Assembly (NCBI RefSeq): GCF_002252445.1
Contig: NZ_NNRJ01000012.1
Coordinates: 1-64,000 of the forward strand
Direction of reading: 5' to 3'
Length of the DNA: 64,000 nt
Source: Brucella thiophenivorans
GTDB taxonomy: Bacteria > Pseudomonadota > Alphaproteobacteria > Rhizobiales > Rhizobiaceae
In this document: one piece after another, positions 28,064 through 35,069 of the stretch
Layout: each line of letters begins with the position of its first letter
How positions within the stretch are numbered: position 1 is the stretch's first letter
Made by a program: the position numbers and the translations under genes
The notes under the pieces: generated by a model
Databases searched by the model: none
Told to the model about the DNA's origin: nothing
Seen by the model: the letters and a program-made list of their open reading frames with translations, nothing else

Positions 28064-28489
28064 TCAGGTTTCAATTTTTTTACAATAAAGTTCGAGACGG
28101 TGATGCACAATCTTATAGCCCAGCGACCGGGCGATTTCTTCCTGCAGTTTTTCAATTTTCTCTGAACTGAATTCGACAACCTCACCTGAATCCATATCGA
28201 TAATATGGTCGTGATGTGCACCGCTTGCCTGCTCAAAGCGCGATGGGCCGCCGGCAAAGGCATGGCGATGGATAGCGCCAAGCTCTTCTAGAAGCTTCAT
28301 CGTCCGATAAACGGTCGACAGAGAAATGCTATTATCAATTTTAACCGCACGCCGAAAAATTTCCAGCGCATCGGGATGATCTTCCGTTTCGGTCAATATG
28401 TTGAGGATGATGCGACGCGGCCGCGTGATGCGGATACCGGCCTGCCTCAATTCCTGCTCATAATCGGGTTTCTTGTGCGATTCACTCAT
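28064..28489 (-). CDS. Mur-like Fur-family metalloregulator
   Basis: A 141-residue regulator with a winged HTH (residues 12-80, [17 protein letters not shown]) and a dimerisation domain with H92-H93-D94-H95 and His-rich IVHHRLELY. It lacks the CxxC pairs of zinc-structured Fur and has a single Cys136, as in rhizobial Mur, which senses manganese and represses sitABCD. In this group Mur is the main Fur homologue, while Irr handles iron. ATG 28489 is preferred over an in-frame start at 28558. The island's left boundary is 84 bases upstream of the start. Confidence 0.8.
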
Positions 28490-28572
28490 GGTGCAATTAT
28501 GCACCCACAACGCCCCAGTTGCAAATATTCGCAACTGGAAAGGAGAACATCTCCCCAAGGCATTTTGAATTC

Positions 28573-28620
28573 TGGTACGCCCAAGGGGAATCGAACCCCT
28601 GTTTGCGCCGTGAGAGGGCG
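28573..28620. repeat. Left att repeat (partial tRNA-Glu copy)
   Basis: Identical over 48 bases to the 3' half of the intact tRNA-Glu at 34995-35042, from the CCA end to the anticodon stem. It lacks the 5' half, so it is an integration scar, not a tRNA. Confidence 0.95.
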
Positions 28621-28857
28621 AATGTCAAGAATTTCACTTTTCACCATTGACCGTCACTACCCTGTTTGAACCCTTTTTGTTTTTCTTGTGTTCCGGATAT
28701 CTATAATTTAACGTCGTAGTTGACCGTCACTATGCGCGGTTGCTTATTAGACGGTTATTAGACGACTTTTGGAAACACATGTCCAAGACGCTTCAAGAAT
28801 CTTCGCTTACAACGCCGAACGCTCGTAAGGGATTGCCGATAGGCAACCACTGGCGAA
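28621..28857. other. Island left end with repeat sequences
   Basis: Holds two copies of TTGACCGTCACTA (28647-28659 and 28720-28732) and a 28-bp block (28742-28769) with tandem TTATTAGACG units that recurs near the right end at 34936-34963 with two mismatches. These look like arm-type recombinase sites. A 35-codon frame starts at 28779. Confidence 0.65.
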
Positions 28858-28886
28858 GTGTTAGTGCCGAAGTTCATCTTGGATAA
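28779..28886 (+). CDS. Possible very small island gene
   Basis: A 35-codon frame (starts MSKTLQESSLTTPN) just inside the left end. It overlaps the start of the next frame in another register, which may mean a frameshifted remnant of one longer gene. No family recognised; no clear ribosome site. Confidence 0.25.
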   Translation: MSKTLQESSLTTPNARKGLPIGNHWRSVSAEVHLG

Positions 28887-29160
28887 CTATCTCATTCCGG
28901 TTGGCCGCAGCAATGGCATCACGGTTTATCGCATCGACAACCCGCATCATGAGCGAGTTCAGATGCATATTCCGGAATTGGAAGAACGCCAGCGCGAAAT
29001 TAAAGCCGATCAGAATGTACGCAATAGGCCGCAATCCAGCATGGCAAATAATGCCCACCTTGAGCCTGCAAGGGTGGCAGAAGTTGCCCACCCTGAAAAT
29101 GACAAGGACGGCAATATATGCCCACCAAGGTGGGCAGAAAATGCCACCAATTACCTTTAA
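28858..29160 (+). CDS. Island protein of unknown function with motif-rich C-terminus
   Basis: About 100 residues. The start is probably a GTG at 28858 (VLVPKFILDN), but this is uncertain. The N-terminal half has a basic/aromatic VGRSNGITVYRIDN patch; the C-terminal half holds repeating Ala-His-Leu/Pro-Glu units encoded by the TGCCCACC motif array (29052-29136). Its 3' end overlaps the next gene by 20 bases. It may be a phage replication-region remnant, but I do not recognise the family. Confidence 0.4.
   Translation: MLVPKFILDNYLIPVGRSNGITVYRIDNPHHERVQMHIPELEERQREIKADQNVRNRPQSSMANNAHLEPARVAEVAHPENDKDGNICPPRWAENATNYL
29052..29136. repeat. TGCCCACC motif array, iteron-like
   Basis: Direct copies of TGCCCACC at 29052-29059, 29085-29092 and 29119-29126, with reverse copies GGTGGCA at 29073-29079 and GGTGGGCA at 29129-29136. 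The direct copies are 33 and 34 bases apart, close to three helical turns. Confidence 0.55.
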
Positions 29161-29533
29161 GGAATACCTTACAGGATTACCTGTAATAAACGGCTATGAA
29201 GTGAGCGACGGTTCTCCAGTTATGGGTGACGTTGAGGGGGAGCGAAGCGCGCAAATAAAAAGCGCTGTAGCAAGCTCCCCCGACTTCCCGGCAAAGAAAA
29301 AAAACGGGTATGCACTCGCAGCAAACGGCGAAGATGAAAACACGCCTTTTGCGGTTCCAGCATCACAGCAGGAGGCCAATAAATTTTTAGCGACCGTGTT
29401 CGGCTCAGATTTGAGAAGATTGCATGAGCGCGTGCTGGACGGGTGCCGTAGACGCCTGATGAATGGTTTGCTCACACCGGCGTTTGTTCGTGCGCGTATC
29501 GATACACTGGAAAAGTCGCAGCCAGCTTTCTGA
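29141..29533 (+). CDS. Island hypothetical protein
   Basis: A 130-residue protein from ATG 29141, with AAGGTGG 8 bases upstream. The N-terminal ITFKEYLTGLPVINGYEVSD segment is followed by a polar linker and a basic helical C-terminus (RRLHERVLDGCRRRLMNGLLTPAFVRARIDTLEKS). The longer frame from 28901 has no support. No family is recognised; the context suggests a phage-type regulatory or replication protein. Confidence 0.5.
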   Translation: MPPITFKEYLTGLPVINGYEVSDGSPVMGDVEGERSAQIKSAVASSPDFPAKKKNGYALAANGEDENTPFAVPASQQEANKFLATVFGSDLRRLHERVLDGCRRRLMNGLLTPAFVRARIDTLEKSQPAF

Positions 29534-29694
29534 GGTGCTTCCCATGCTCGACAAGCTGCTGCCCGGCCACGTTAATGCATTGAACCATTCTGTTTTACGA
29601 TTATTGTGATTGTGAAGGTCTTGAAACCGATAGATTGGTAACTAAATCGAAACCGTCATTCCAACATTTAACGTTCGATCAAATGGAGGTTTCG

Positions 29695-29997
29695 ATGAGC
29701 GACCGTTTGTTTGACAGTCCTGTTTTTGTGAAGGACGGCCCTTACCTTGTTCGAGAAATTGCCAGCATCGGGGATGCTTTAGATTTTCTTTATGAATGGC
29801 CCGAATACGACCGTGGCCTCATTTATGAAACCGCTTGGAAAGCGTGCTGCGATAGCCACGATGGCATCAAACCAGTGGAAGCAGTAGAGAGCGCCATTCG
29901 AGGTTTCGCCAAGAAGACCGGAATTCTCGAAGAACCAGAAGTCGCGCTTCCATGGATGAAGGGCAAAAAATCAGGAGGCGGCCTAGTTCAGGCTTGA
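29695..29997 (+). CDS. DUF982 protein
   Basis: A 100-residue protein with the DUF982 pattern: a short N-terminus, GPYLVREIASIGDALDFLYEWPEYDRGLIYETAWKAC, then a Glu/Ala helical tail. DUF982 genes are abundant and largely confined to Rhizobiales, often on plasmids and islands; function unknown. ATG 29695 has a strong GGAGGT (29685-29690). A tiny membrane peptide gene follows. Confidence 0.75.
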   Translation: MSDRLFDSPVFVKDGPYLVREIASIGDALDFLYEWPEYDRGLIYETAWKACCDSHDGIKPVEAVESAIRGFAKKTGILEEPEVALPWMKGKKSGGGLVQA

Positions 29998-30006
29998 AGA
30001 CGCATC

Positions 30007-30096
30007 ATGATTTGGTTTCTAATAATTGAAGCGGCTATTCTTGCTGCACTATCTTATGTGTTAGCTTTTATCGGCTGGAAAGAGATCCGGTATTAA
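30007..30096 (+). CDS. Possible 29-residue membrane peptide
   Basis: An open frame with one hydrophobic helix (IIEAAILAALSYVLAFIGW) and a basic end, 9 bases after the DUF982 stop. The ribosome site is weak. Too short for a family call; it could be a small membrane protein or chance. Confidence 0.3.
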   Translation: MIWFLIIEAAILAALSYVLAFIGWKEIRY

Positions 30097-30138
30097 ATGA
30101 ACCACCGACGAAAACTATAATACCCTTTATAAACCAGA

Positions 30139-30164
30139 CCCCGGCCTCATCGCCGGGGTTTTTT
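30139..30164 (+). terminator. Terminator after the DUF982 unit
   Basis: A 7-bp GC stem (CCCCGGC and GCCGGGG) with a CTCATC loop, followed by six T residues. Confidence 0.88.
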
Positions 30165-30254
30165 GTTTTGGCTTGGTTTTCCAATTGCTCTTCAGACCTA
30201 ACAAGCGTTAGGCTCATGTCTGTTCGCTTTAAAGGAATTTTAGGAGGGCGGAAT

Positions 30255-30665
30255 ATGTCCACAATCACTAGGTTCGCTTTAATTGTCTTGGCTGGCTCAT
30301 TGTTCATATACCCGGCTACCGCAGCAGTGGATTGCACAGGAGTAGATCAAGCACTAACGAAAGAGCGAAAGACTGAATACGCGAAACTTATCTCTGAAAG
30401 CCTCAAAGAAAAGGTCAAACCAGCCAAGGTCGAAGTTGACAGTTTTATGCAGTCGGGTGACTGGACTGTAGTTTATGCCTCAACGCCTGTGGCCGACCCC
30501 GGCTATTTTTTCTTTGACAACTCCTCCGGCAAGCAGACGTTTAAAGATGTCTGGGGCGGTATGGCTGATGACGGCGATGGATCTCAGCTGGTGAAATTTG
30601 CGAAGGACCTCGGAGCCAACGAGAAAATCGCGATTTGTTTTTCGAAGGTGGTCATGAGCGATTAA
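30255..30665 (+). CDS. Exported island protein (mature end Val-Asp-Cys)
   Basis: A 136-residue protein with a clear Sec signal (MSTITRFALIVLAGSLFIYP) and probable cleavage at ATA or TAA just before Val-Asp-Cys. The mature protein has two cysteines (the N-terminal one and one near the end, AICFSK), suggesting a disulfide across the chain. A strong AGGAGGG precedes the start. No family is recognised. Its mature start resembles two other exported proteins in this island. Confidence 0.65.
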   Translation: MSTITRFALIVLAGSLFIYPATAAVDCTGVDQALTKERKTEYAKLISESLKEKVKPAKVEVDSFMQSGDWTVVYASTPVADPGYFFFDNSSGKQTFKDVWGGMADDGDGSQLVKFAKDLGANEKIAICFSKVVMSD

Positions 30666-30826
30666 TCATTTGCAATAATCTGGAAGCCCTTTCTGCGAGG
30701 AGCAATGCCGGAAGGCATACACCGGCAAGGCCGTTTCGAGGTGATGCCTGTTGTCTTATGTTGACATCAAAATCATTTTTCACTCCGCTTCGCTTAGGAA
30801 ACTCACCTCACTGGGCACGATATTGC

Positions 30827-31204
30827 CTAATCACGATTACCCAAGCGCAATCCTAGAACGACGGCGATATAACCGAGAACAATACTCAGCGCCAAATAGA
30901 GCAACGCTGACATCATTCCGGCTGTCGATCCTGACATGAGGACATATGCCCCGTAAACAAAGCTGGAGAAGGTCGAAAGCCCGCCCATTATGCCAGTCGC
31001 TACCAATGTGTTGACGCCTTGGCTGAGCGTGCCTTTCTGATAAAGGCTGGTCGTAAGTCCGAGCAGAAAAGAGGCGACGACGTTAGCGACGAGGATTGAC
31101 ATCGGAATGCCGTCTGAAAGGTTTGGGACGCCCAACATTAGAAATTCACGGAGCATGGCACCCACAGCGCCGCCGACGAAAACGAATATGATTGTATTAA
31201 TCAT
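30827..31204 (-). CDS. crcB: Fluoride channel subunit CrcB (second of pair)
   Basis: A 125-residue four-helix protein of the CrcB/FEX family that exports fluoride as a dual-topology channel. It has GGAVGAMLREFL near the start, VANVVASFLLG, and the GGLSTFSSFVYG pore motif near residue 75. Together with the neighbour 10 bases upstream it would form a heterodimer, as in organisms with paired crcB genes. Confidence 0.88.
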   Translation of the reverse strand: MINTIIFVFVGGAVGAMLREFLMLGVPNLSDGIPMSILVANVVASFLLGLTTSLYQKGTLSQGVNTLVATGIMGGLSTFSSFVYGAYVLMSGSTAGMMSALLYLALSIVLGYIAVVLGLRLGNRD

Positions 31205-31214
31205 CGCGACACCC

Positions 31215-31604
31215 TCACCCTATCCAGCTTGCTAACAAGCCACCGAATGCTGCTGCGGCCAAACCGGCAAAAACAGATCCGAAAAGATACACGATTGCTA
31301 GGCTTTGGTATCGCTCCCGCGCCAGCTTCACTGCATCGAGCTGCATCGAACTGAATGTTGTGTATCCGCCGAGAAAGCCGGTTAGAATGCCAGCTTTCAA
31401 GATATCGCCAAATCGCTCATACCACTCGACGGAAAACAACACCGACAGAAAACCTATGGCAAAAGCGCCTGTCACGTTGATCAAGAATGTTCCAAGCGGG
31501 AATTTCCCCTGATAGCTTTCGCCAGCCAGTTTACCAACCCACCACCGAAACACCGAGCCAAGCCCGCCTCCGAGACCGACCCAAAGTATATCCAACGGCT
31601 GCAT
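31215..31604 (-). CDS. crcB: Fluoride channel subunit CrcB (first of pair)
   Basis: A 129-residue CrcB protein with GGGLGSVFRWWVG at the N-terminus, LINVTGAFAIGFL and the GGYTTFSSMQLD pore motif near residue 80. It is the first gene of the pair; GAGGGG precedes the ATG by 8 bases. A perfect 10-4-10 palindrome sits 18 bases upstream. The pair is island cargo and would confer fluoride tolerance. Confidence 0.9.
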   Translation of the reverse strand: MQPLDILWVGLGGGLGSVFRWWVGKLAGESYQGKFPLGTFLINVTGAFAIGFLSVLFSVEWYERFGDILKAGILTGFLGGYTTFSSMQLDAVKLARERYQSLAIVYLFGSVFAGLAAAAFGGLLASWIG

Positions 31605-31621
31605 ATGAACCCCTCATCGCC

Positions 31622-31645
31622 AATCTAGTTAGTAGTAACTAGATT
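31622..31645. promoter_or_regulatory. Perfect palindrome upstream of the crcB pair
   Basis: Arms AATCTAGTTA and TAACTAGATT separated by GTAG. At 18 bases before the crcB start it is well placed as a repressor operator, or as an RNA hairpin in the leader. It does not match the fluoride riboswitch. Confidence 0.55.
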
Positions 31646-31802
31646 TGGACCGCAGGCAAGATGCTAGCAAAGGTCTCCTGAATTTTAAGGAGGGGGACGC
31701 ATAGTTTTATGCAGACCCACGTTCGATCTAAGCCGAAACCCATAAACTTGTGCTTGACCACCCGGCACCCCTCTGCCAGCTTGTGGCAATTAGGTGTCGA
31801 TA

Positions 31803-32363
31803 ATGAATAACTTTCCGATTGTTGCGACGGTTTTATCGTTGGTGCTAGGCCTATCGGTAACGCGCCTTCTACTGGGATTGGTAACAGTTTTTCGTATCCG
31901 TAGAACATCACCTGTGGACTGGGTGCCGCTGGCTTGGAGCGGTGTCTTATTTATTGTTCAGTTGGAATATTGGTGGGCGATTAATCAGCTACCGACACTT
32001 CGCCCGACATACCGATTCACCGATTTTGTTTTCATCGTATTGATGACGCTAATGCTGTTTTTAACAGCAGCGTTGATACTTCCTAGCCGGAGCGAAGATG
32101 AAACAGTAAGCCTTCGGATATATTTCGAGAAAGATGGACGATTTGCGCTTCTGTCATTTACAGGCTTTTTACTGTTCGCCTTCGTATTAAATGTTGTCTT
32201 TCTAAATAGTCCAATAAACGGTGTATGGGCACTCACCGACATCCCAATGATTGTTCTGCCAGTGCTGGCGTTCTTAACTCGTCAGCGAAAACACTATGCA
32301 CTAATTACAGCTTTTTATTTGCCCCTAACTTTACTTGATGTTTGGATTTCGCTTTTAGGCTGA
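31803..32363 (+). CDS. Island multi-pass membrane protein
   Basis: A 186-residue protein with about six hydrophobic segments spread over its length, aromatic-rich loops (VQLEYWWAINQLP) and a basic RTRR-like patch near residue 30. No family is recognised. It is divergent from the crcB pair with about 200 bases between, and may be another cargo gene. Confidence 0.5.
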   Translation: MNNFPIVATVLSLVLGLSVTRLLLGLVTVFRIRRTSPVDWVPLAWSGVLFIVQLEYWWAINQLPTLRPTYRFTDFVFIVLMTLMLFLTAALILPSRSEDETVSLRIYFEKDGRFALLSFTGFLLFAFVLNVVFLNSPINGVWALTDIPMIVLPVLAFLTRQRKHYALITAFYLPLTLLDVWISLLG

Positions 32364-32452
32364 AACTTGTATCTGTCGCACTGACCTGTACTAGGGCGAC
32401 ATTTTCACTATTATGCACACTTTTAACAACTTGCGGGAAAGTACGGGGTTAG

Positions 32453-32683
32453 ATGGGCCTTTTCATAAAGATAATTGGAATACTCGCATTGATACCCGGC
32501 GCGACAATTCTTGTATTTGGTGTCGCGACAACTGGCACTGACAGGCTTGTTCTCCTGTCTTGCGGGATTAGCTTGTGCTTATCCGGCTTGGTGTTGATCT
32601 GCCTTGGCATCGTTATAGAGCATCTCTACGATATGAAAAAAACGCACGAGCGCCTCATCAAGCTTTTGGAAGAACGCAAATAA
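32453..32683 (+). CDS. Small island membrane protein
   Basis: A 76-residue protein with two hydrophobic helices (residues 4-25 and 32-53) and a charged C-terminal helix (YDMKKTHERLIKLLEERK). Resembles small phage or stress membrane proteins but is not assignable. The ribosome site is GGGG-poor; support is from composition and the lack of a competing frame. Confidence 0.45.
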   Translation: MGLFIKIIGILALIPGATILVFGVATTGTDRLVLLSCGISLCLSGLVLICLGIVIEHLYDMKKTHERLIKLLEERK

Positions 32684-32939
32684 ATCGAAAAGCTAAAAAG
32701 CCAAAGGCAGGATGCAGTCGCATTGAGTATTGCGGACGCAGTTAGGGCCATGTTGTAAATCAGCAATCATGAGCGCCGGACGCACAAGAGACGCAGGCCG
32801 GACGTATCGCTCAAATCTGACGGATCAAACATTCCCCAGTGGAGAAAGCCGGTCAAACCCAGCCATGCCACATGAACATGGTGCAGCACTGTCTTTCATG
32901 TCCAAAGGTCAGCAGCTCTCGAGCCGCTTGTGTGACGGT
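32684..32939. other. Gene-free stretch in the island
   Basis: Contains short open frames without coding character or a ribosome site. I see no tRNA, hairpin or repeat of note. Confidence 0.4.
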
Positions 32940-33116
32940 TTAATGCGGAAGAATTGCATTAATTTGGGTCACCATATCATTTAGCTGAATGCGCAACTCC
33001 GCATCCTGCTCTTCTCGTTCGTGGTCGGATAGACCAGAACGTGCATGAATTTTAGCCTTAACCTCATCGATCTTAGCTTTGATGTGCTCAATCTCAGATT
33101 TGATGACGTGTGACAT
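32940..33116 (-). CDS. 58-residue coiled-coil protein
   Basis: A short minus-strand gene with AAGGGA upstream of ATG 33116. The protein is a charged amphipathic helix with heptad spacing (SEIEHIKAKIDEVKAKIHA, then EEQDAELRIQLNDMVTQINAIL). It has no membrane segment or catalytic motif. A DNA-bound or regulatory phage protein is possible, but no family is recognised. Confidence 0.5.
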   Translation of the reverse strand: MSHVIKSEIEHIKAKIDEVKAKIHARSGLSDHEREEQDAELRIQLNDMVTQINAILPH

Positions 33117-33267
33117 TGTCTATCCCTTAATGTGATTGGTGAATCTGAACCTACACAATTGATTGACGGAAGCAAATAATTCGGTGCCAGCCACATCGTC
33201 ACCTAATGACATAGGGAAGACTGGTTATATGCGGGGCATGCGTCAAGCCAAGCTATCAAGCCATATT

Positions 33268-33438
33268 TTATTGGGTTGTCTTCCTGCCCGGCTGCAAACC
33301 ACGTTCGGTATTGCCCCAAGTAGGGTCAATGCCATGGTAAGCGTCATATGCTCGTTTGGAAAGAACCACGAGTAGTATTGCACCGCATATGACGCAGAGT
33401 ATGGTCAAGAACTTCCGAGAAGGGGCTCTGTTAGGCAC
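33268..33438 (-). CDS. Small single-pass membrane protein
   Basis: A 56-residue protein with one membrane helix (FLTILCVICGAILLVVL) and a basic N-terminus. The start is taken as GTG 33438 because GGAG lies 7 bases upstream; a TTG at 33459 is an alternative. No family recognised. Confidence 0.4.
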   Translation of the reverse strand: MPNRAPSRKFLTILCVICGAILLVVLSKRAYDAYHGIDPTWGNTERGLQPGRKTTQ

Positions 33439-33681
33439 TCCATATCTCCAGTGATGCAAGGATTATCGATTAACTTGCATTTGTGGAGGTGAATATATGT
33501 TTAATATATCGAATGCGGTCACAATGACTGTACTAACGAGCCTGTCGCGATTGCCCAAGTTAGGTAAATTCCAGCTACTGCCGATGAAATGTAGATTGAT
33601 CTTTTGAGTAACGTATCCATCCGGGGCGTTTAGACAGACTGCCATTAAACAGCAATACAAAAATAAATAAAACCACAGTTT

Positions 33682-33706
33682 AGCCTCGCTCACGCGGGGC
33701 TTTTTG
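33682..33706 (+). terminator. Orphan terminator in the island
   Basis: A stem of AGCCTCGC with GCGGGGCT (one non-canonical pair), TCAC loop, and a T run. No plus-strand gene lies close upstream; the next gene starts 31 bases later. Confidence 0.6.
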
Positions 33707-33736
33707 CTCTTTCAGCAACAAAATCGAGGAAATCAC

Positions 33737-34012
33737 ATGAAGCTGTTCCGAAGTCTGTTCTTCGGCTGCGCTGCTATGCTCGCGGCTGTTCTTTGCATGA
33801 GTGCACCGGCATCGGCTGTTGATTGCAGTCCAGGCGTGTTTCAGATCCACTCAGTCAGTTATGATTATGTCGTGCCTGACGTTTTAAATTGCTGGCCAAA
33901 CCTGCGCTGCCAATTAAGGTTTAGCGCAGGTGCTCATATCCATTTTTTGACAGAGAGTGACTATTCAGATGGCACCGGACATGAAAGGTCGCCTTCTTCG
34001 CATCTCAAATAG
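33737..34012 (+). CDS. Exported island protein, probably truncated
   Basis: A 91-residue product with a signal peptide (MKLFRSLFFGCAAMLAAVL) and cleavage near SA before Val-Asp-Cys. It then runs 50 residues and ends over the 3' end of the convergent LprI-like gene (52-base overlap). The C-terminal part is low in recognisable pattern, which suggests it has lost its original end. CGAGGA precedes the ATG. Confidence 0.5.
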   Translation: MKLFRSLFFGCAAMLAAVLCMSAPASAVDCSPGVFQIHSVSYDYVVPDVLNCWPNLRCQLRFSAGAHIHFLTESDYSDGTGHERSPSSHLK

Positions 34013-34365
34013 TCGGATAGTTGATTGTTGCGTTCTGAAGTTAGTTGGGTCCTGCACATTACAACCATCATTGGGTATATGCTTCCGCCAGCGGTTCCTG
34101 ATGCCGCAAAATCACATTCAGCATCTCTAAATTTTATCCATGCACGCTGTGAAGATATCAAGAGTTTCTTCGTGTCTGGATCGTCAGCGAGCCGCTGCTC
34201 AATTTTTTTGTAGGTTCCGTTTAGTAGCTTATCAATTTTAACTAATTCATCACTGGCACATTGGTTCATCGTGACTTGATCGTCGGCCTTATCACAGTCG
34301 ACTGCTGCAAGTGTTGGTAATGACCATAATGCTGCTGTCATCGCAGTTAAAGTAAATAGCTTCAT
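33961..34365 (-). CDS. LprI-type (DUF1311) lysozyme inhibitor-like protein
   Basis: A 134-residue exported protein: signal peptide to about residue 21 (LPTLAA), then a four-cysteine helical domain with DDQVTMNQCASDELVKIDKLLNGTYKKI and SQRAWIKFRDAECDF, the PF07007/LprI pattern. Such proteins inhibit lysozyme or act in host interaction, though many are uncharacterised. ATG 34365 has GGGGAGGCGGGA directly upstream. The mature N-terminus is Val-Asp-Cys. Confidence 0.75.
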   Translation of the reverse strand: MKLFTLTAMTAALWSLPTLAAVDCDKADDQVTMNQCASDELVKIDKLLNGTYKKIEQRLADDPDTKKLLISSQRAWIKFRDAECDFAASGTAGGSIYPMMVVMCRTQLTSERNNQLSDYLRCEEGDLSCPVPSE

Positions 34366-34426
34366 TCCCGCCTCCCCTTTTTCGGGAGTAAACCTTGACC
34401 CACACATTAAATCAAGAGGGTCGCGG

Positions 34427-34540
34427 ATGACCGAAAAGTTTCCCGCTCTCTCTGCGTGTATCCTCCTTGCCTCATGCGCATTACCTTACGAGCGTCACTG
34501 CTCATTCAACGATTATCTGACAAAGACGTGGTGTAAGTGA
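34427..34540 (+). CDS. Small gene coupled to the terminase-like gene
   Basis: A 37-residue product whose stop overlaps the next start (TGATG), with AGAGGG upstream. It has a short hydrophobic stretch and three cysteines (MTEKFPALSACILLASCAL, then YERHC). Tight coupling supports translation; function unknown. It is shorter than usual gene-finding limits. Confidence 0.45.
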   Translation: MTEKFPALSACILLASCALPYERHCSFNDYLTKTWCK

Positions 34541-34866
34541 TGAGTGATGAAGCCTCGTCAGTAGGAAGGCCAGCAATATTCCGTCAGGAACTGGCTGATC
34601 AGATATGCGAGCGTATTGCAGACGGGGATAGCTTGCGGACCATTTGCGCATATGAAAGCTTCCCGTCTCGCACTACGGTTTTCAAGTGGTTATCACACAG
34701 CGCTGAATTTGTGGACCAATACGCACGCGCACGCGAGGCTTCACCGATTAATCTGACATCACTACGCGAGAGAAACCTGGAGAAGGTATATCCAATTATG
34801 GAGACAACCCTACGCGCAGTTAAGGCGCATTCACTAAAAACTGAGACTTTCGCGATTGGGCATTAA
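34540..34866 (+). CDS. Phage terminase small subunit-like protein (partial)
   Basis: A 108-residue product with an HTH typical of small terminases in alphaproteobacterial phages: GRPAIFRQELADQICERIADGDSLRTICAYESFPSRTTVFKWL, then FVDQYARAREA. In phages the domain recognises the cohesive-end or pac site. The C-terminus differs from usual members and may be truncated or replaced. No large terminase follows, so it is a remnant next to the island's right end. Confidence 0.7.
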   Translation: MSDEASSVGRPAIFRQELADQICERIADGDSLRTICAYESFPSRTTVFKWLSHSAEFVDQYARAREASPINLTSLRERNLEKVYPIMETTLRAVKAHSLKTETFAIGH

Positions 34867-34935
34867 TGACAGATTGTCGCAGAAAGCTTTTCCAGACCGC
34901 CGTATCAGACGACAATGAGTGCTTTCCTAGAAACC

Positions 34936-34963
34936 GCTTATTTGACGGTTATTAGACAACTTT
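34936..34963. repeat. Inner repeat at the island's right end
   Basis: 28 bases (begins GCTTATTTGACGGTTATT) matching 28742-28769 with two mismatches, in direct orientation, 32 bases inside the right att repeat. Such paired repeats suit integrase arm sites. Confidence 0.6.
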
Positions 34964-34994
34964 CTGCGTAACCGATCTAAGTGATTGATTTTAT

Positions 34995-35042
34995 TGGTAC
35001 GCCCAAGGGGAATCGAACCCCTGTTTGCGCCGTGAGAGGGCG
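34995..35042. repeat. Right att repeat (within tRNA-Glu)
   Basis: The 48 bases shared exactly with 28573-28620. They cover the tRNA from its CCA end to the anticodon stem. Confidence 0.95.
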
Positions 35043-35069
35043 CCGTCCTAACCGCTAGACGATGGGCGC
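34995..35069 (-). tRNA. tRNA-Glu(CTC)
   Basis: A complete cloverleaf read on the minus strand: acceptor GCGCCCA pairing with TGGGCGT, an anticodon stem GCGCC/GGCGC with loop CTCTCAC (anticodon CTC), a T-arm GGGGTTCGATTCCCC, and an encoded CCA. The element integrated downstream and left the tRNA intact. Confidence 0.96.

What the first reader, a model, noticed from the sequence alone, without database searches (positions are those of the whole stretch)
28573..35042. Integrase-less island in tRNA-Glu(CTC) with intact att repeats
A perfect 48-bp copy of the tRNA 3' half bounds 6.4 kb of mixed phage-like and cargo genes, and the tRNA stays whole. No recombinase gene is present, so the element either lost it or is a satellite mobilised by another integrase.
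Basis: partly seen in the sequence, partly recalled or inferred. Interest (0 to 1): 0.75.

Follow-up and report, generated by a model that had tools for sequence, protein, structure and literature searches.

The report
Decayed tRNA-Glu island, integrase mostly deleted
This is the shrunken leftover of a mobile DNA element that once inserted itself at a glutamate tRNA gene; nearly all of its integrase gene is gone but both insertion ends are intact, which is an ordinary way for such elements to become stranded.

Summary
In detail: an exact 48-bp copy of the 3' half of tRNA-Glu(CTC) bounds 6,422 bp, and the tRNA gene is whole. The element lost its integrase. 206 bp inside the left repeat are the first 35 codons of a tyrosine integrase (28779-28883), cut at about 28885 and joined to the middle of another island gene, most simply by one internal deletion. 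Full-length copies of this integrase lie in a 13.9-kb island at the same tRNA in Ochrobactrum teleogrylli LCB8 (G021) and beside a 46-of-48 copy of the tRNA-Glu repeat in two Mesorhizobium records. The remnant is the only match (E 0.001 or better) in the host draft, so no helper was found. An island-free site exists in G020, another species of the genus. Of 24 genus genomes compared (window included), 3 have both ends (one with a full-length integrase, two truncated at different points), 3 keep only a right-end scar, 18 neither. A terminase small-subunit gene is also truncated; the CrcB pair looks constrained. Best reading: a CIME-like, decayed, phage-related tRNA island; a new member of a known kind, low interest.

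The parts
28064..28540 (-). Fur/Irr-like regulator gene that flanks the site on the left in relatives (name recalled, not scanned)
   Evidence: ORF 28064-28558; this flank matches in 23 of 23 same-genus relatives, in G012 on a separate contig
28573..28620 (-). attL core: displaced copy of the 3' half of tRNA-Glu(CTC)
   Evidence: exact 48-bp repeat
28742..28769 (+). candidate integrase arm-type repeat, left copy (role inferred)
   Evidence: 93% direct repeat with 34936-34963; a copy at both ends of the G021 and G012 islands
28779..28886 (+). 5' remnant of a tyrosine integrase gene: 35 codons, then a stop at the joint
28887..29533 (+). 3' part of an island gene (start lost at the joint, frame interrupted further in); open counterparts of 334 aa in C49 and 262 aa in G021; no Pfam match
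29695..29997 (+). DUF982 protein gene
   Evidence: Pfam PF06169 E 1.1e-9
30255..30665 (+). probably secreted protein (by eye), no family above cut-off, 96% identical to a copy in the own-genome C49 island
30827..31204 (-). CrcB-type gene (fluoride channel family, role recalled), one of a pair
   Evidence: Pfam PF02537 E 3.8e-20; dN/dS 0.10 against the G010 copy
31215..31604 (-). CrcB-type gene, the other of the pair
   Evidence: Pfam PF02537 E 7.3e-25; dN/dS 0.10 against the G010 copy
31794..32363 (+). membrane-protein-like ORF (by eye), no family
32453..32683 (+). small membrane-protein-like ORF (by eye), no family above cut-off
33961..34362 (-). LprI-family gene
   Evidence: Pfam PF07007 E 6.5e-26; phrog_4895
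34427..34540 (+). 37-aa ORF with a lipoprotein-like start (by eye), just upstream of the terminase fragment
   Evidence: DNA 91-96% identical elsewhere in G018, G002 and G019
34537..34866 (+). truncated phage terminase small-subunit gene: about the first 70 of 109 residues match
   Evidence: PF20901 positions 2-54 of 106; phrog_1482 2-68 of 147; a 176-aa terminase small subunit in G014 matches over residues 2-73 only
34936..34963 (+). candidate integrase arm-type repeat, right copy (role inferred)
34995..35069 (-). intact tRNA-Glu(CTC); 34995-35042 is the attR core

Best explanation
It is a decayed integrative island. An ancestor related to the 13.9-kb island of Ochrobactrum teleogrylli LCB8 inserted at tRNA-Glu(CTC) by its own tyrosine integrase. 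It supplied a new 3' half to the tRNA (attR) and left the displaced half as attL. Later a rearrangement, most simply one internal deletion, joined integrase codon 35 (about 28885) to the middle of a distal gene and removed the catalytic part of the integrase and the genes between. A terminase small-subunit gene is truncated too, while cargo such as the CrcB pair stayed open. It now sits as a remnant that cannot excise by itself. Because attL, attR and the flanking repeats persist, an incoming element with the same integrase could in principle excise it or fuse with it, as described for CIMEs. Shown: both repeats, the integrase remnant, the joint, full-length homologues beside the same tRNA repeat, and island-free sites in other species. 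Inferred: the order of events, the immobility, the role of the arm repeats and possible rescue. The confidence covers the remnant reading whichever way the joint arose; the second rival below is a variant within it.
For: Exact 48-bp repeats and a whole tRNA. The integrase start lies 206 bp from the attL core; in G021, G012 and the two Mesorhizobium loci the distance is 197-208 bp. The window aligns to the G021 and G012 integrase starts up to 28885, then from 28887-28888 to a different gene of the C49 and G021 islands. In G021 those two genes are about 10 kb apart inside one island. Full-length open integrase (443-446 aa) in O. teleogrylli LCB8 and two Mesorhizobium records, each beside a core copy with 0-2 mismatches of 48. 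Nine of 13 more distant integrases found in 397 order genomes also sit beside a recognisable core copy, 10 or fewer mismatches. The whole 313-bp left end occurs in 3 of 35 genus genomes, the window included. The joined-flank comparison with G020 shows the island-free site. The 66 bp next to the tRNA are kept in 5 of 23 genus relatives, with a clean gap to the other 18.
Against: No second strain of the same species could be compared (one genome per species is held), so the age and spread of the loss are unknown. The block 28887-30733 is 93% identical to the own-genome C49 island but 85% to G021 over 28888-29551, so the joint could come from recombination between two islands. Four of the 13 distant integrases lack a recognisable core copy beside them, and one of the 13 has a stop inside, so tRNA-Glu use is not shown for the whole integrase family. 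The CrcB pair (dN/dS 0.10) and the secreted protein (0.13) look constrained, so the island is not all junk; LprI could not be rated (dS saturated) and two ORFs had no copy to compare.
Confidence: 0.9

Rival explanations
1. A trans-mobilised satellite or mobilisable island that does not need its own integrase because a resident element supplies it.
For: attL, attR and the candidate arm repeats are intact, and some cargo genes look constrained. The own genome has 10 matches to the phage integrase family.
Against: The only match to the cognate integrase in the draft genome is the 35-codon remnant. None of the 10 integrase-family loci (about 3.4 kb each) carries the core (one has an 11-base match) or a tRNA gene. 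The remnant shows that the element once had its own integrase.
Confidence: 0.06
2. Variant of the best reading: the left joint comes from recombination between two islands (a tRNA-Glu island end plus a C49-type body), not from a simple deletion within one island.
For: The 93% match to the C49 island starts at the joint and runs to 30733, and C49 has further pieces of the window island in the same order up to 34776.
Against: The G021 island at tRNA-Glu carries the same gene inside one element, so an internal deletion suffices.
Confidence: 0.3
3. The repeat is only a tRNA duplication or recombination product unrelated to a mobile element.
For: Two further tRNA-Glu copies (96% identical to the window's) lie 220 bp apart on C56.
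Against: Integrase remnant and arm repeats at the expected spacing; the left copy is a 3' half, not a whole tRNA; island-free sites and an integrase-bearing island at the same place.
Confidence: 0.01

Closest known systems
13.9-kb tRNA-Glu island of Ochrobactrum teleogrylli LCB8 (G021; L037/L068)
   Same: same tRNA, identical 48-bp core, related left and right ends, same integrase start, one shared body gene
   Different: integrase full length, about 10 kb of further genes between integrase and the shared gene, no CrcB match to the window
CIME (cis-mobilizable element: lost integration and transfer genes but kept attL and attR; definition from a passage of PMC5704250)
   Same: retains attL and attR; integrase lost by decay
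   Different: CIMEs are defined there as decayed ICEs or IMEs; the parent here carries phage-like genes, and no conjugation gene was seen among the proteins scanned
tRNA-targeted genomic islands as in the Islander database (PMC4383910; start of abstract in the search listing only)
   Same: regenerated tRNA and displaced fragment mark the ends
   Different: integrase gene truncated here
G012 remnant (Hyphomicrobiales MAG bin_288; L058/L071)
   Same: both tRNA-Glu cores, same integrase start, integrase truncated
   Different: 2.55 kb; integrase N-terminal 214 aa run on into a stretch matching the C-terminal part of phrog_24990, a different break point

Membership tests
tRNA-integrated genomic island | displaced tRNA fragment and whole tRNA gene bounding extra DNA | tested here: met
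tRNA-integrated genomic island | island-free site in relatives | tested here: met
   G020 67 bp, G013 151 bp between flank match and tRNA; other species of the genus, not other strains
tRNA-integrated genomic island | integrase gene inside the ends | tested here: not met
   only a 35-codon remnant; full length in G021. A decayed member by descent, not a working one
CIME (cis-mobilizable element) | attL and attR retained | tested here: met
CIME (cis-mobilizable element) | integration genes lost by decay of a larger element | tested here: met
CIME (cis-mobilizable element) | parent is an ICE or IME | tested here: inconclusive
   Pfam scan of 10 G021 proteins found only the integrase; not every ORF of that island was scanned
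CIME (cis-mobilizable element) | moves by accretion with an incoming element | not testable with these tools
   needs strains or reads
phage satellite | working integrase of its own | tested here: not met
   integrase reduced to 35 codons
phage satellite | packaging by a helper phage | not testable with these tools
   no helper or particle data; the terminase small subunit is truncated

The most novel reading that the evidence does not exclude
A family of phage-related tRNA-Glu islands in Hyphomicrobiales whose members repeatedly lose the integrase body while both att ends, the arm repeats and the integrase start are kept (2 of 3 genus members with both ends, at different break points), because such ends-only islands are now and then re-mobilised in cis by incoming integrase-bearing relatives.
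Probability: 0.08. Interest if true: 0.45.

Novelty: new member of a known kind. Interest (0 to 1): 0.2.

Why it matters
It suggests a simple check for other integrase-less islands: look for an integrase start beside attL. Beyond that it is ordinary genome decay.

Tried and rejected
Phage and plasmid collections: no record covers 80% of the island in one place. All 17 phage records matched only the tRNA; the 20 listed of 83 plasmid records cover at most 8% each, and 63 were not listed. The integrase has one distant plasmid match, Cupriavidus oxalaticus, 26.7%, and no confirmed relative in viral contigs. Rfam: only the tRNA reached a family's gathering score; no fluoride riboswitch was among the 10 matches up to E 5. 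PADLOC: nothing at E 0.01 for the 10 proteins given, 5 from the window and 5 from the G021 and C49 islands. An intact prophage was rejected: no large terminase, portal or capsid family was reported for the window proteins scanned (10, 10). Literature: Ochrobactrum with genomic island, tRNA-Glu and integrase gave 0 papers; phage satellite with integrase and Rhizobiales 0; tRNA-Glu with integrase, genomic island and Mesorhizobium 2, seen in the listing only; six Brucella and island terms 22 papers, 15 listed. Of PMC11476347, on tRNA integration in Sinorhizobium meliloti, I saw passages only and could not tell whether tRNA-Glu(CUC) is used there. PMC5704250 was seen in passages. Searches failed because I gave a wrong reading frame and were repeated. 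Searches stopped partway at the G005 locus; one search replaced the distance table, and the arm positions cited were printed before it stopped. One search was one base out of frame and is replaced.
Full report
Check of the observation. ARAGORN finds one tRNA in the window, tRNA-Glu(CTC), at 34995-35069 on the minus strand. The 48-bp stretch 34995-35042 is repeated without a mismatch at 28573-28620, 6,422 bp away. At 10 or fewer mismatches the core matched nothing in ten other own-genome integrase loci (34 kb, both strands) or in 270 kb of shuffles. G+C per kilobase is 45.6-50.5% between 29 and 35 kb; the 24-29 kb stretch to the left is also low (47.4-49.9%) and the rest of the window mostly 50-57%, so composition alone would not delimit the island.

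The integrase is not simply absent. A search of the own genome with the G021 integrase returns one place at E 0.001 or better, 28779-28979 of the window. The translation from 28779 is 35 codons of integrase followed by a stop. The DNA aligns to the G021 and G012 left ends from the core up to 28885. From 28887-28888 on it aligns instead to the middle of a gene that is open over 334 aa in C49 and 262 aa in G021. In G021 that gene and the integrase lie about 10 kb apart in one island. So the catalytic part of the integrase is missing and two genes are joined at about 28885. The second gene also changes frame further on in the window. A terminase small-subunit gene near the right end keeps about its first 70 residues.

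Where the full-length integrase is. A pattern scan of the named genome collection, which finds close relatives only, gave 4 loci: Ochrobactrum teleogrylli LCB8, two Mesorhizobium records, and a Hyphomicrobiales MAG. The first and last have contigs of the same length as G021:C2 and G012:C279 and are taken to be them. The first three encode a protein of 443-446 aa, 76-77% identical. All four lie beside a copy of the tRNA-Glu core with 0-2 mismatches of 48, 197-208 bp from the integrase start; the window remnant is at 206 bp. In G012 the protein is integrase for 214 residues and then matches the C-terminal part of phrog_24990, a second truncation with a different break. In 397 order genomes drawn evenly, 13 had a relative at E 1e-30 or better, one of them with a stop inside. 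Nine of those 13 loci hold a core copy with 10 or fewer mismatches and 4 do not.

The site in relatives. Forty relatives were searched with the region. The 23 of the same genus were inspected; the 17 of other families were not. Two of the 23 (G021, G012) have two cores. The distance from the flank match (window 28540) to the tRNA could be measured in 22 of 23; in G012 the flank is on another contig. Twenty of the 22 have 67 bp (G020), 151 bp (G013) and upwards to 3,139 bp with a single core; G011 has 14,344 bp with a single core, and G021 14,626 bp with two. Comparing the joined window flanks with G020 and G013 shows the island-free site. The 66 bp to the left of the tRNA are recognisable in 5 of 23 (G021, G012, G006, G019, G022; alignment scores 23 to 50) and in none of the other 18 (scores -7 or lower; best of 500 shuffles -2). 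Thus 3 of 24 genomes, the window included, have both ends, 3 have a right-end scar and 18 have neither. The genus has 35 genomes held; the 11 others were searched for the left end and integrase only. Over all 35 the 313-bp left end is found whole in the window, G012 and G021 only, and so is a match to the integrase.

Is there a helper? The own draft (4.36 Mb, 77 contigs, 98.5% complete) has 10 matches to the phage integrase family. None of these loci, about 3.4 kb each, holds a tRNA gene or more than an 11-base core match. The core occurs only at the two ends here and in two tRNA copies on C56 at 96%. So no cognate integrase is seen; the unfinished draft leaves a small gap, and an integrase with a much shorter core would not show in this test.

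Contents. The island carries a DUF982 gene, a probably secreted protein, two CrcB-family genes, an LprI-family gene and unassigned ORFs. dN/dS against other copies is 0.10 for each CrcB gene, 0.13 for the secreted protein, and 0.11 and 0.56 for DUF982, the latter on 3 differences; LprI could not be rated and two ORFs had no copy among the loci given. Own-genome contig C49 has a related island with 28887-30733 at 93% and further pieces in the same order. It carries another integrase, and a 16-bp repeat links the integrase side to the 3' end of tRNA-Thr(CGT), so it looks like a separate island that shares modules.

Mechanism and filing. Integration of the parent by a tyrosine integrase at tRNA-Glu is well supported by the integrase-bearing relatives. 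That the window element cannot do so itself is inferred from the missing catalytic half. It works like a CIME: ends kept, machinery lost (definition from a passage of PMC5704250). I do not file it as a CIME, since the parent was not shown to be an ICE or IME. It is a new member of a known kind, decayed tRNA islands. The most novel reading, recurrent loss of the integrase with ends kept for re-mobilisation, rests on 2 of 3 members and is not excluded.

Noticed in passing
L035 7045-20000 with L036 1-10303 (own genome, contig C49): A roughly 23-kb island that appears to sit in tRNA-Thr(CGT), with a different integrase, Toprim and DUF3631 genes and a 16-bp repeat; it shares modules with the window island at 93% identity.
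   Followed up: partly
L037 5509-7626 and L035 15134-17250: A three-gene cassette shared by the G021 and C49 islands (by eye). The three G021 proteins had no Pfam match and, with the first C49 protein, no PADLOC match; a defence role is a guess from position only.
   Followed up: partly
L038 1755-14170 (G011): About 14 kb of glycosyltransferase-like and membrane-protein-like ORFs (by eye) sits between the irr-like gene and tRNA-Glu with no second core: the site takes up other DNA too.
   Followed up: no
L058 2115-3476 (G012): Integrase N-terminal 214 aa continues in frame into a stretch matching the C-terminal part of a phage protein family; a second integrase truncation.
   Followed up: partly
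window 29038-29146: Short imperfect direct and inverted repeats of 21-22 bp inside the broken gene, spaced 33-34 bp.
   Followed up: no
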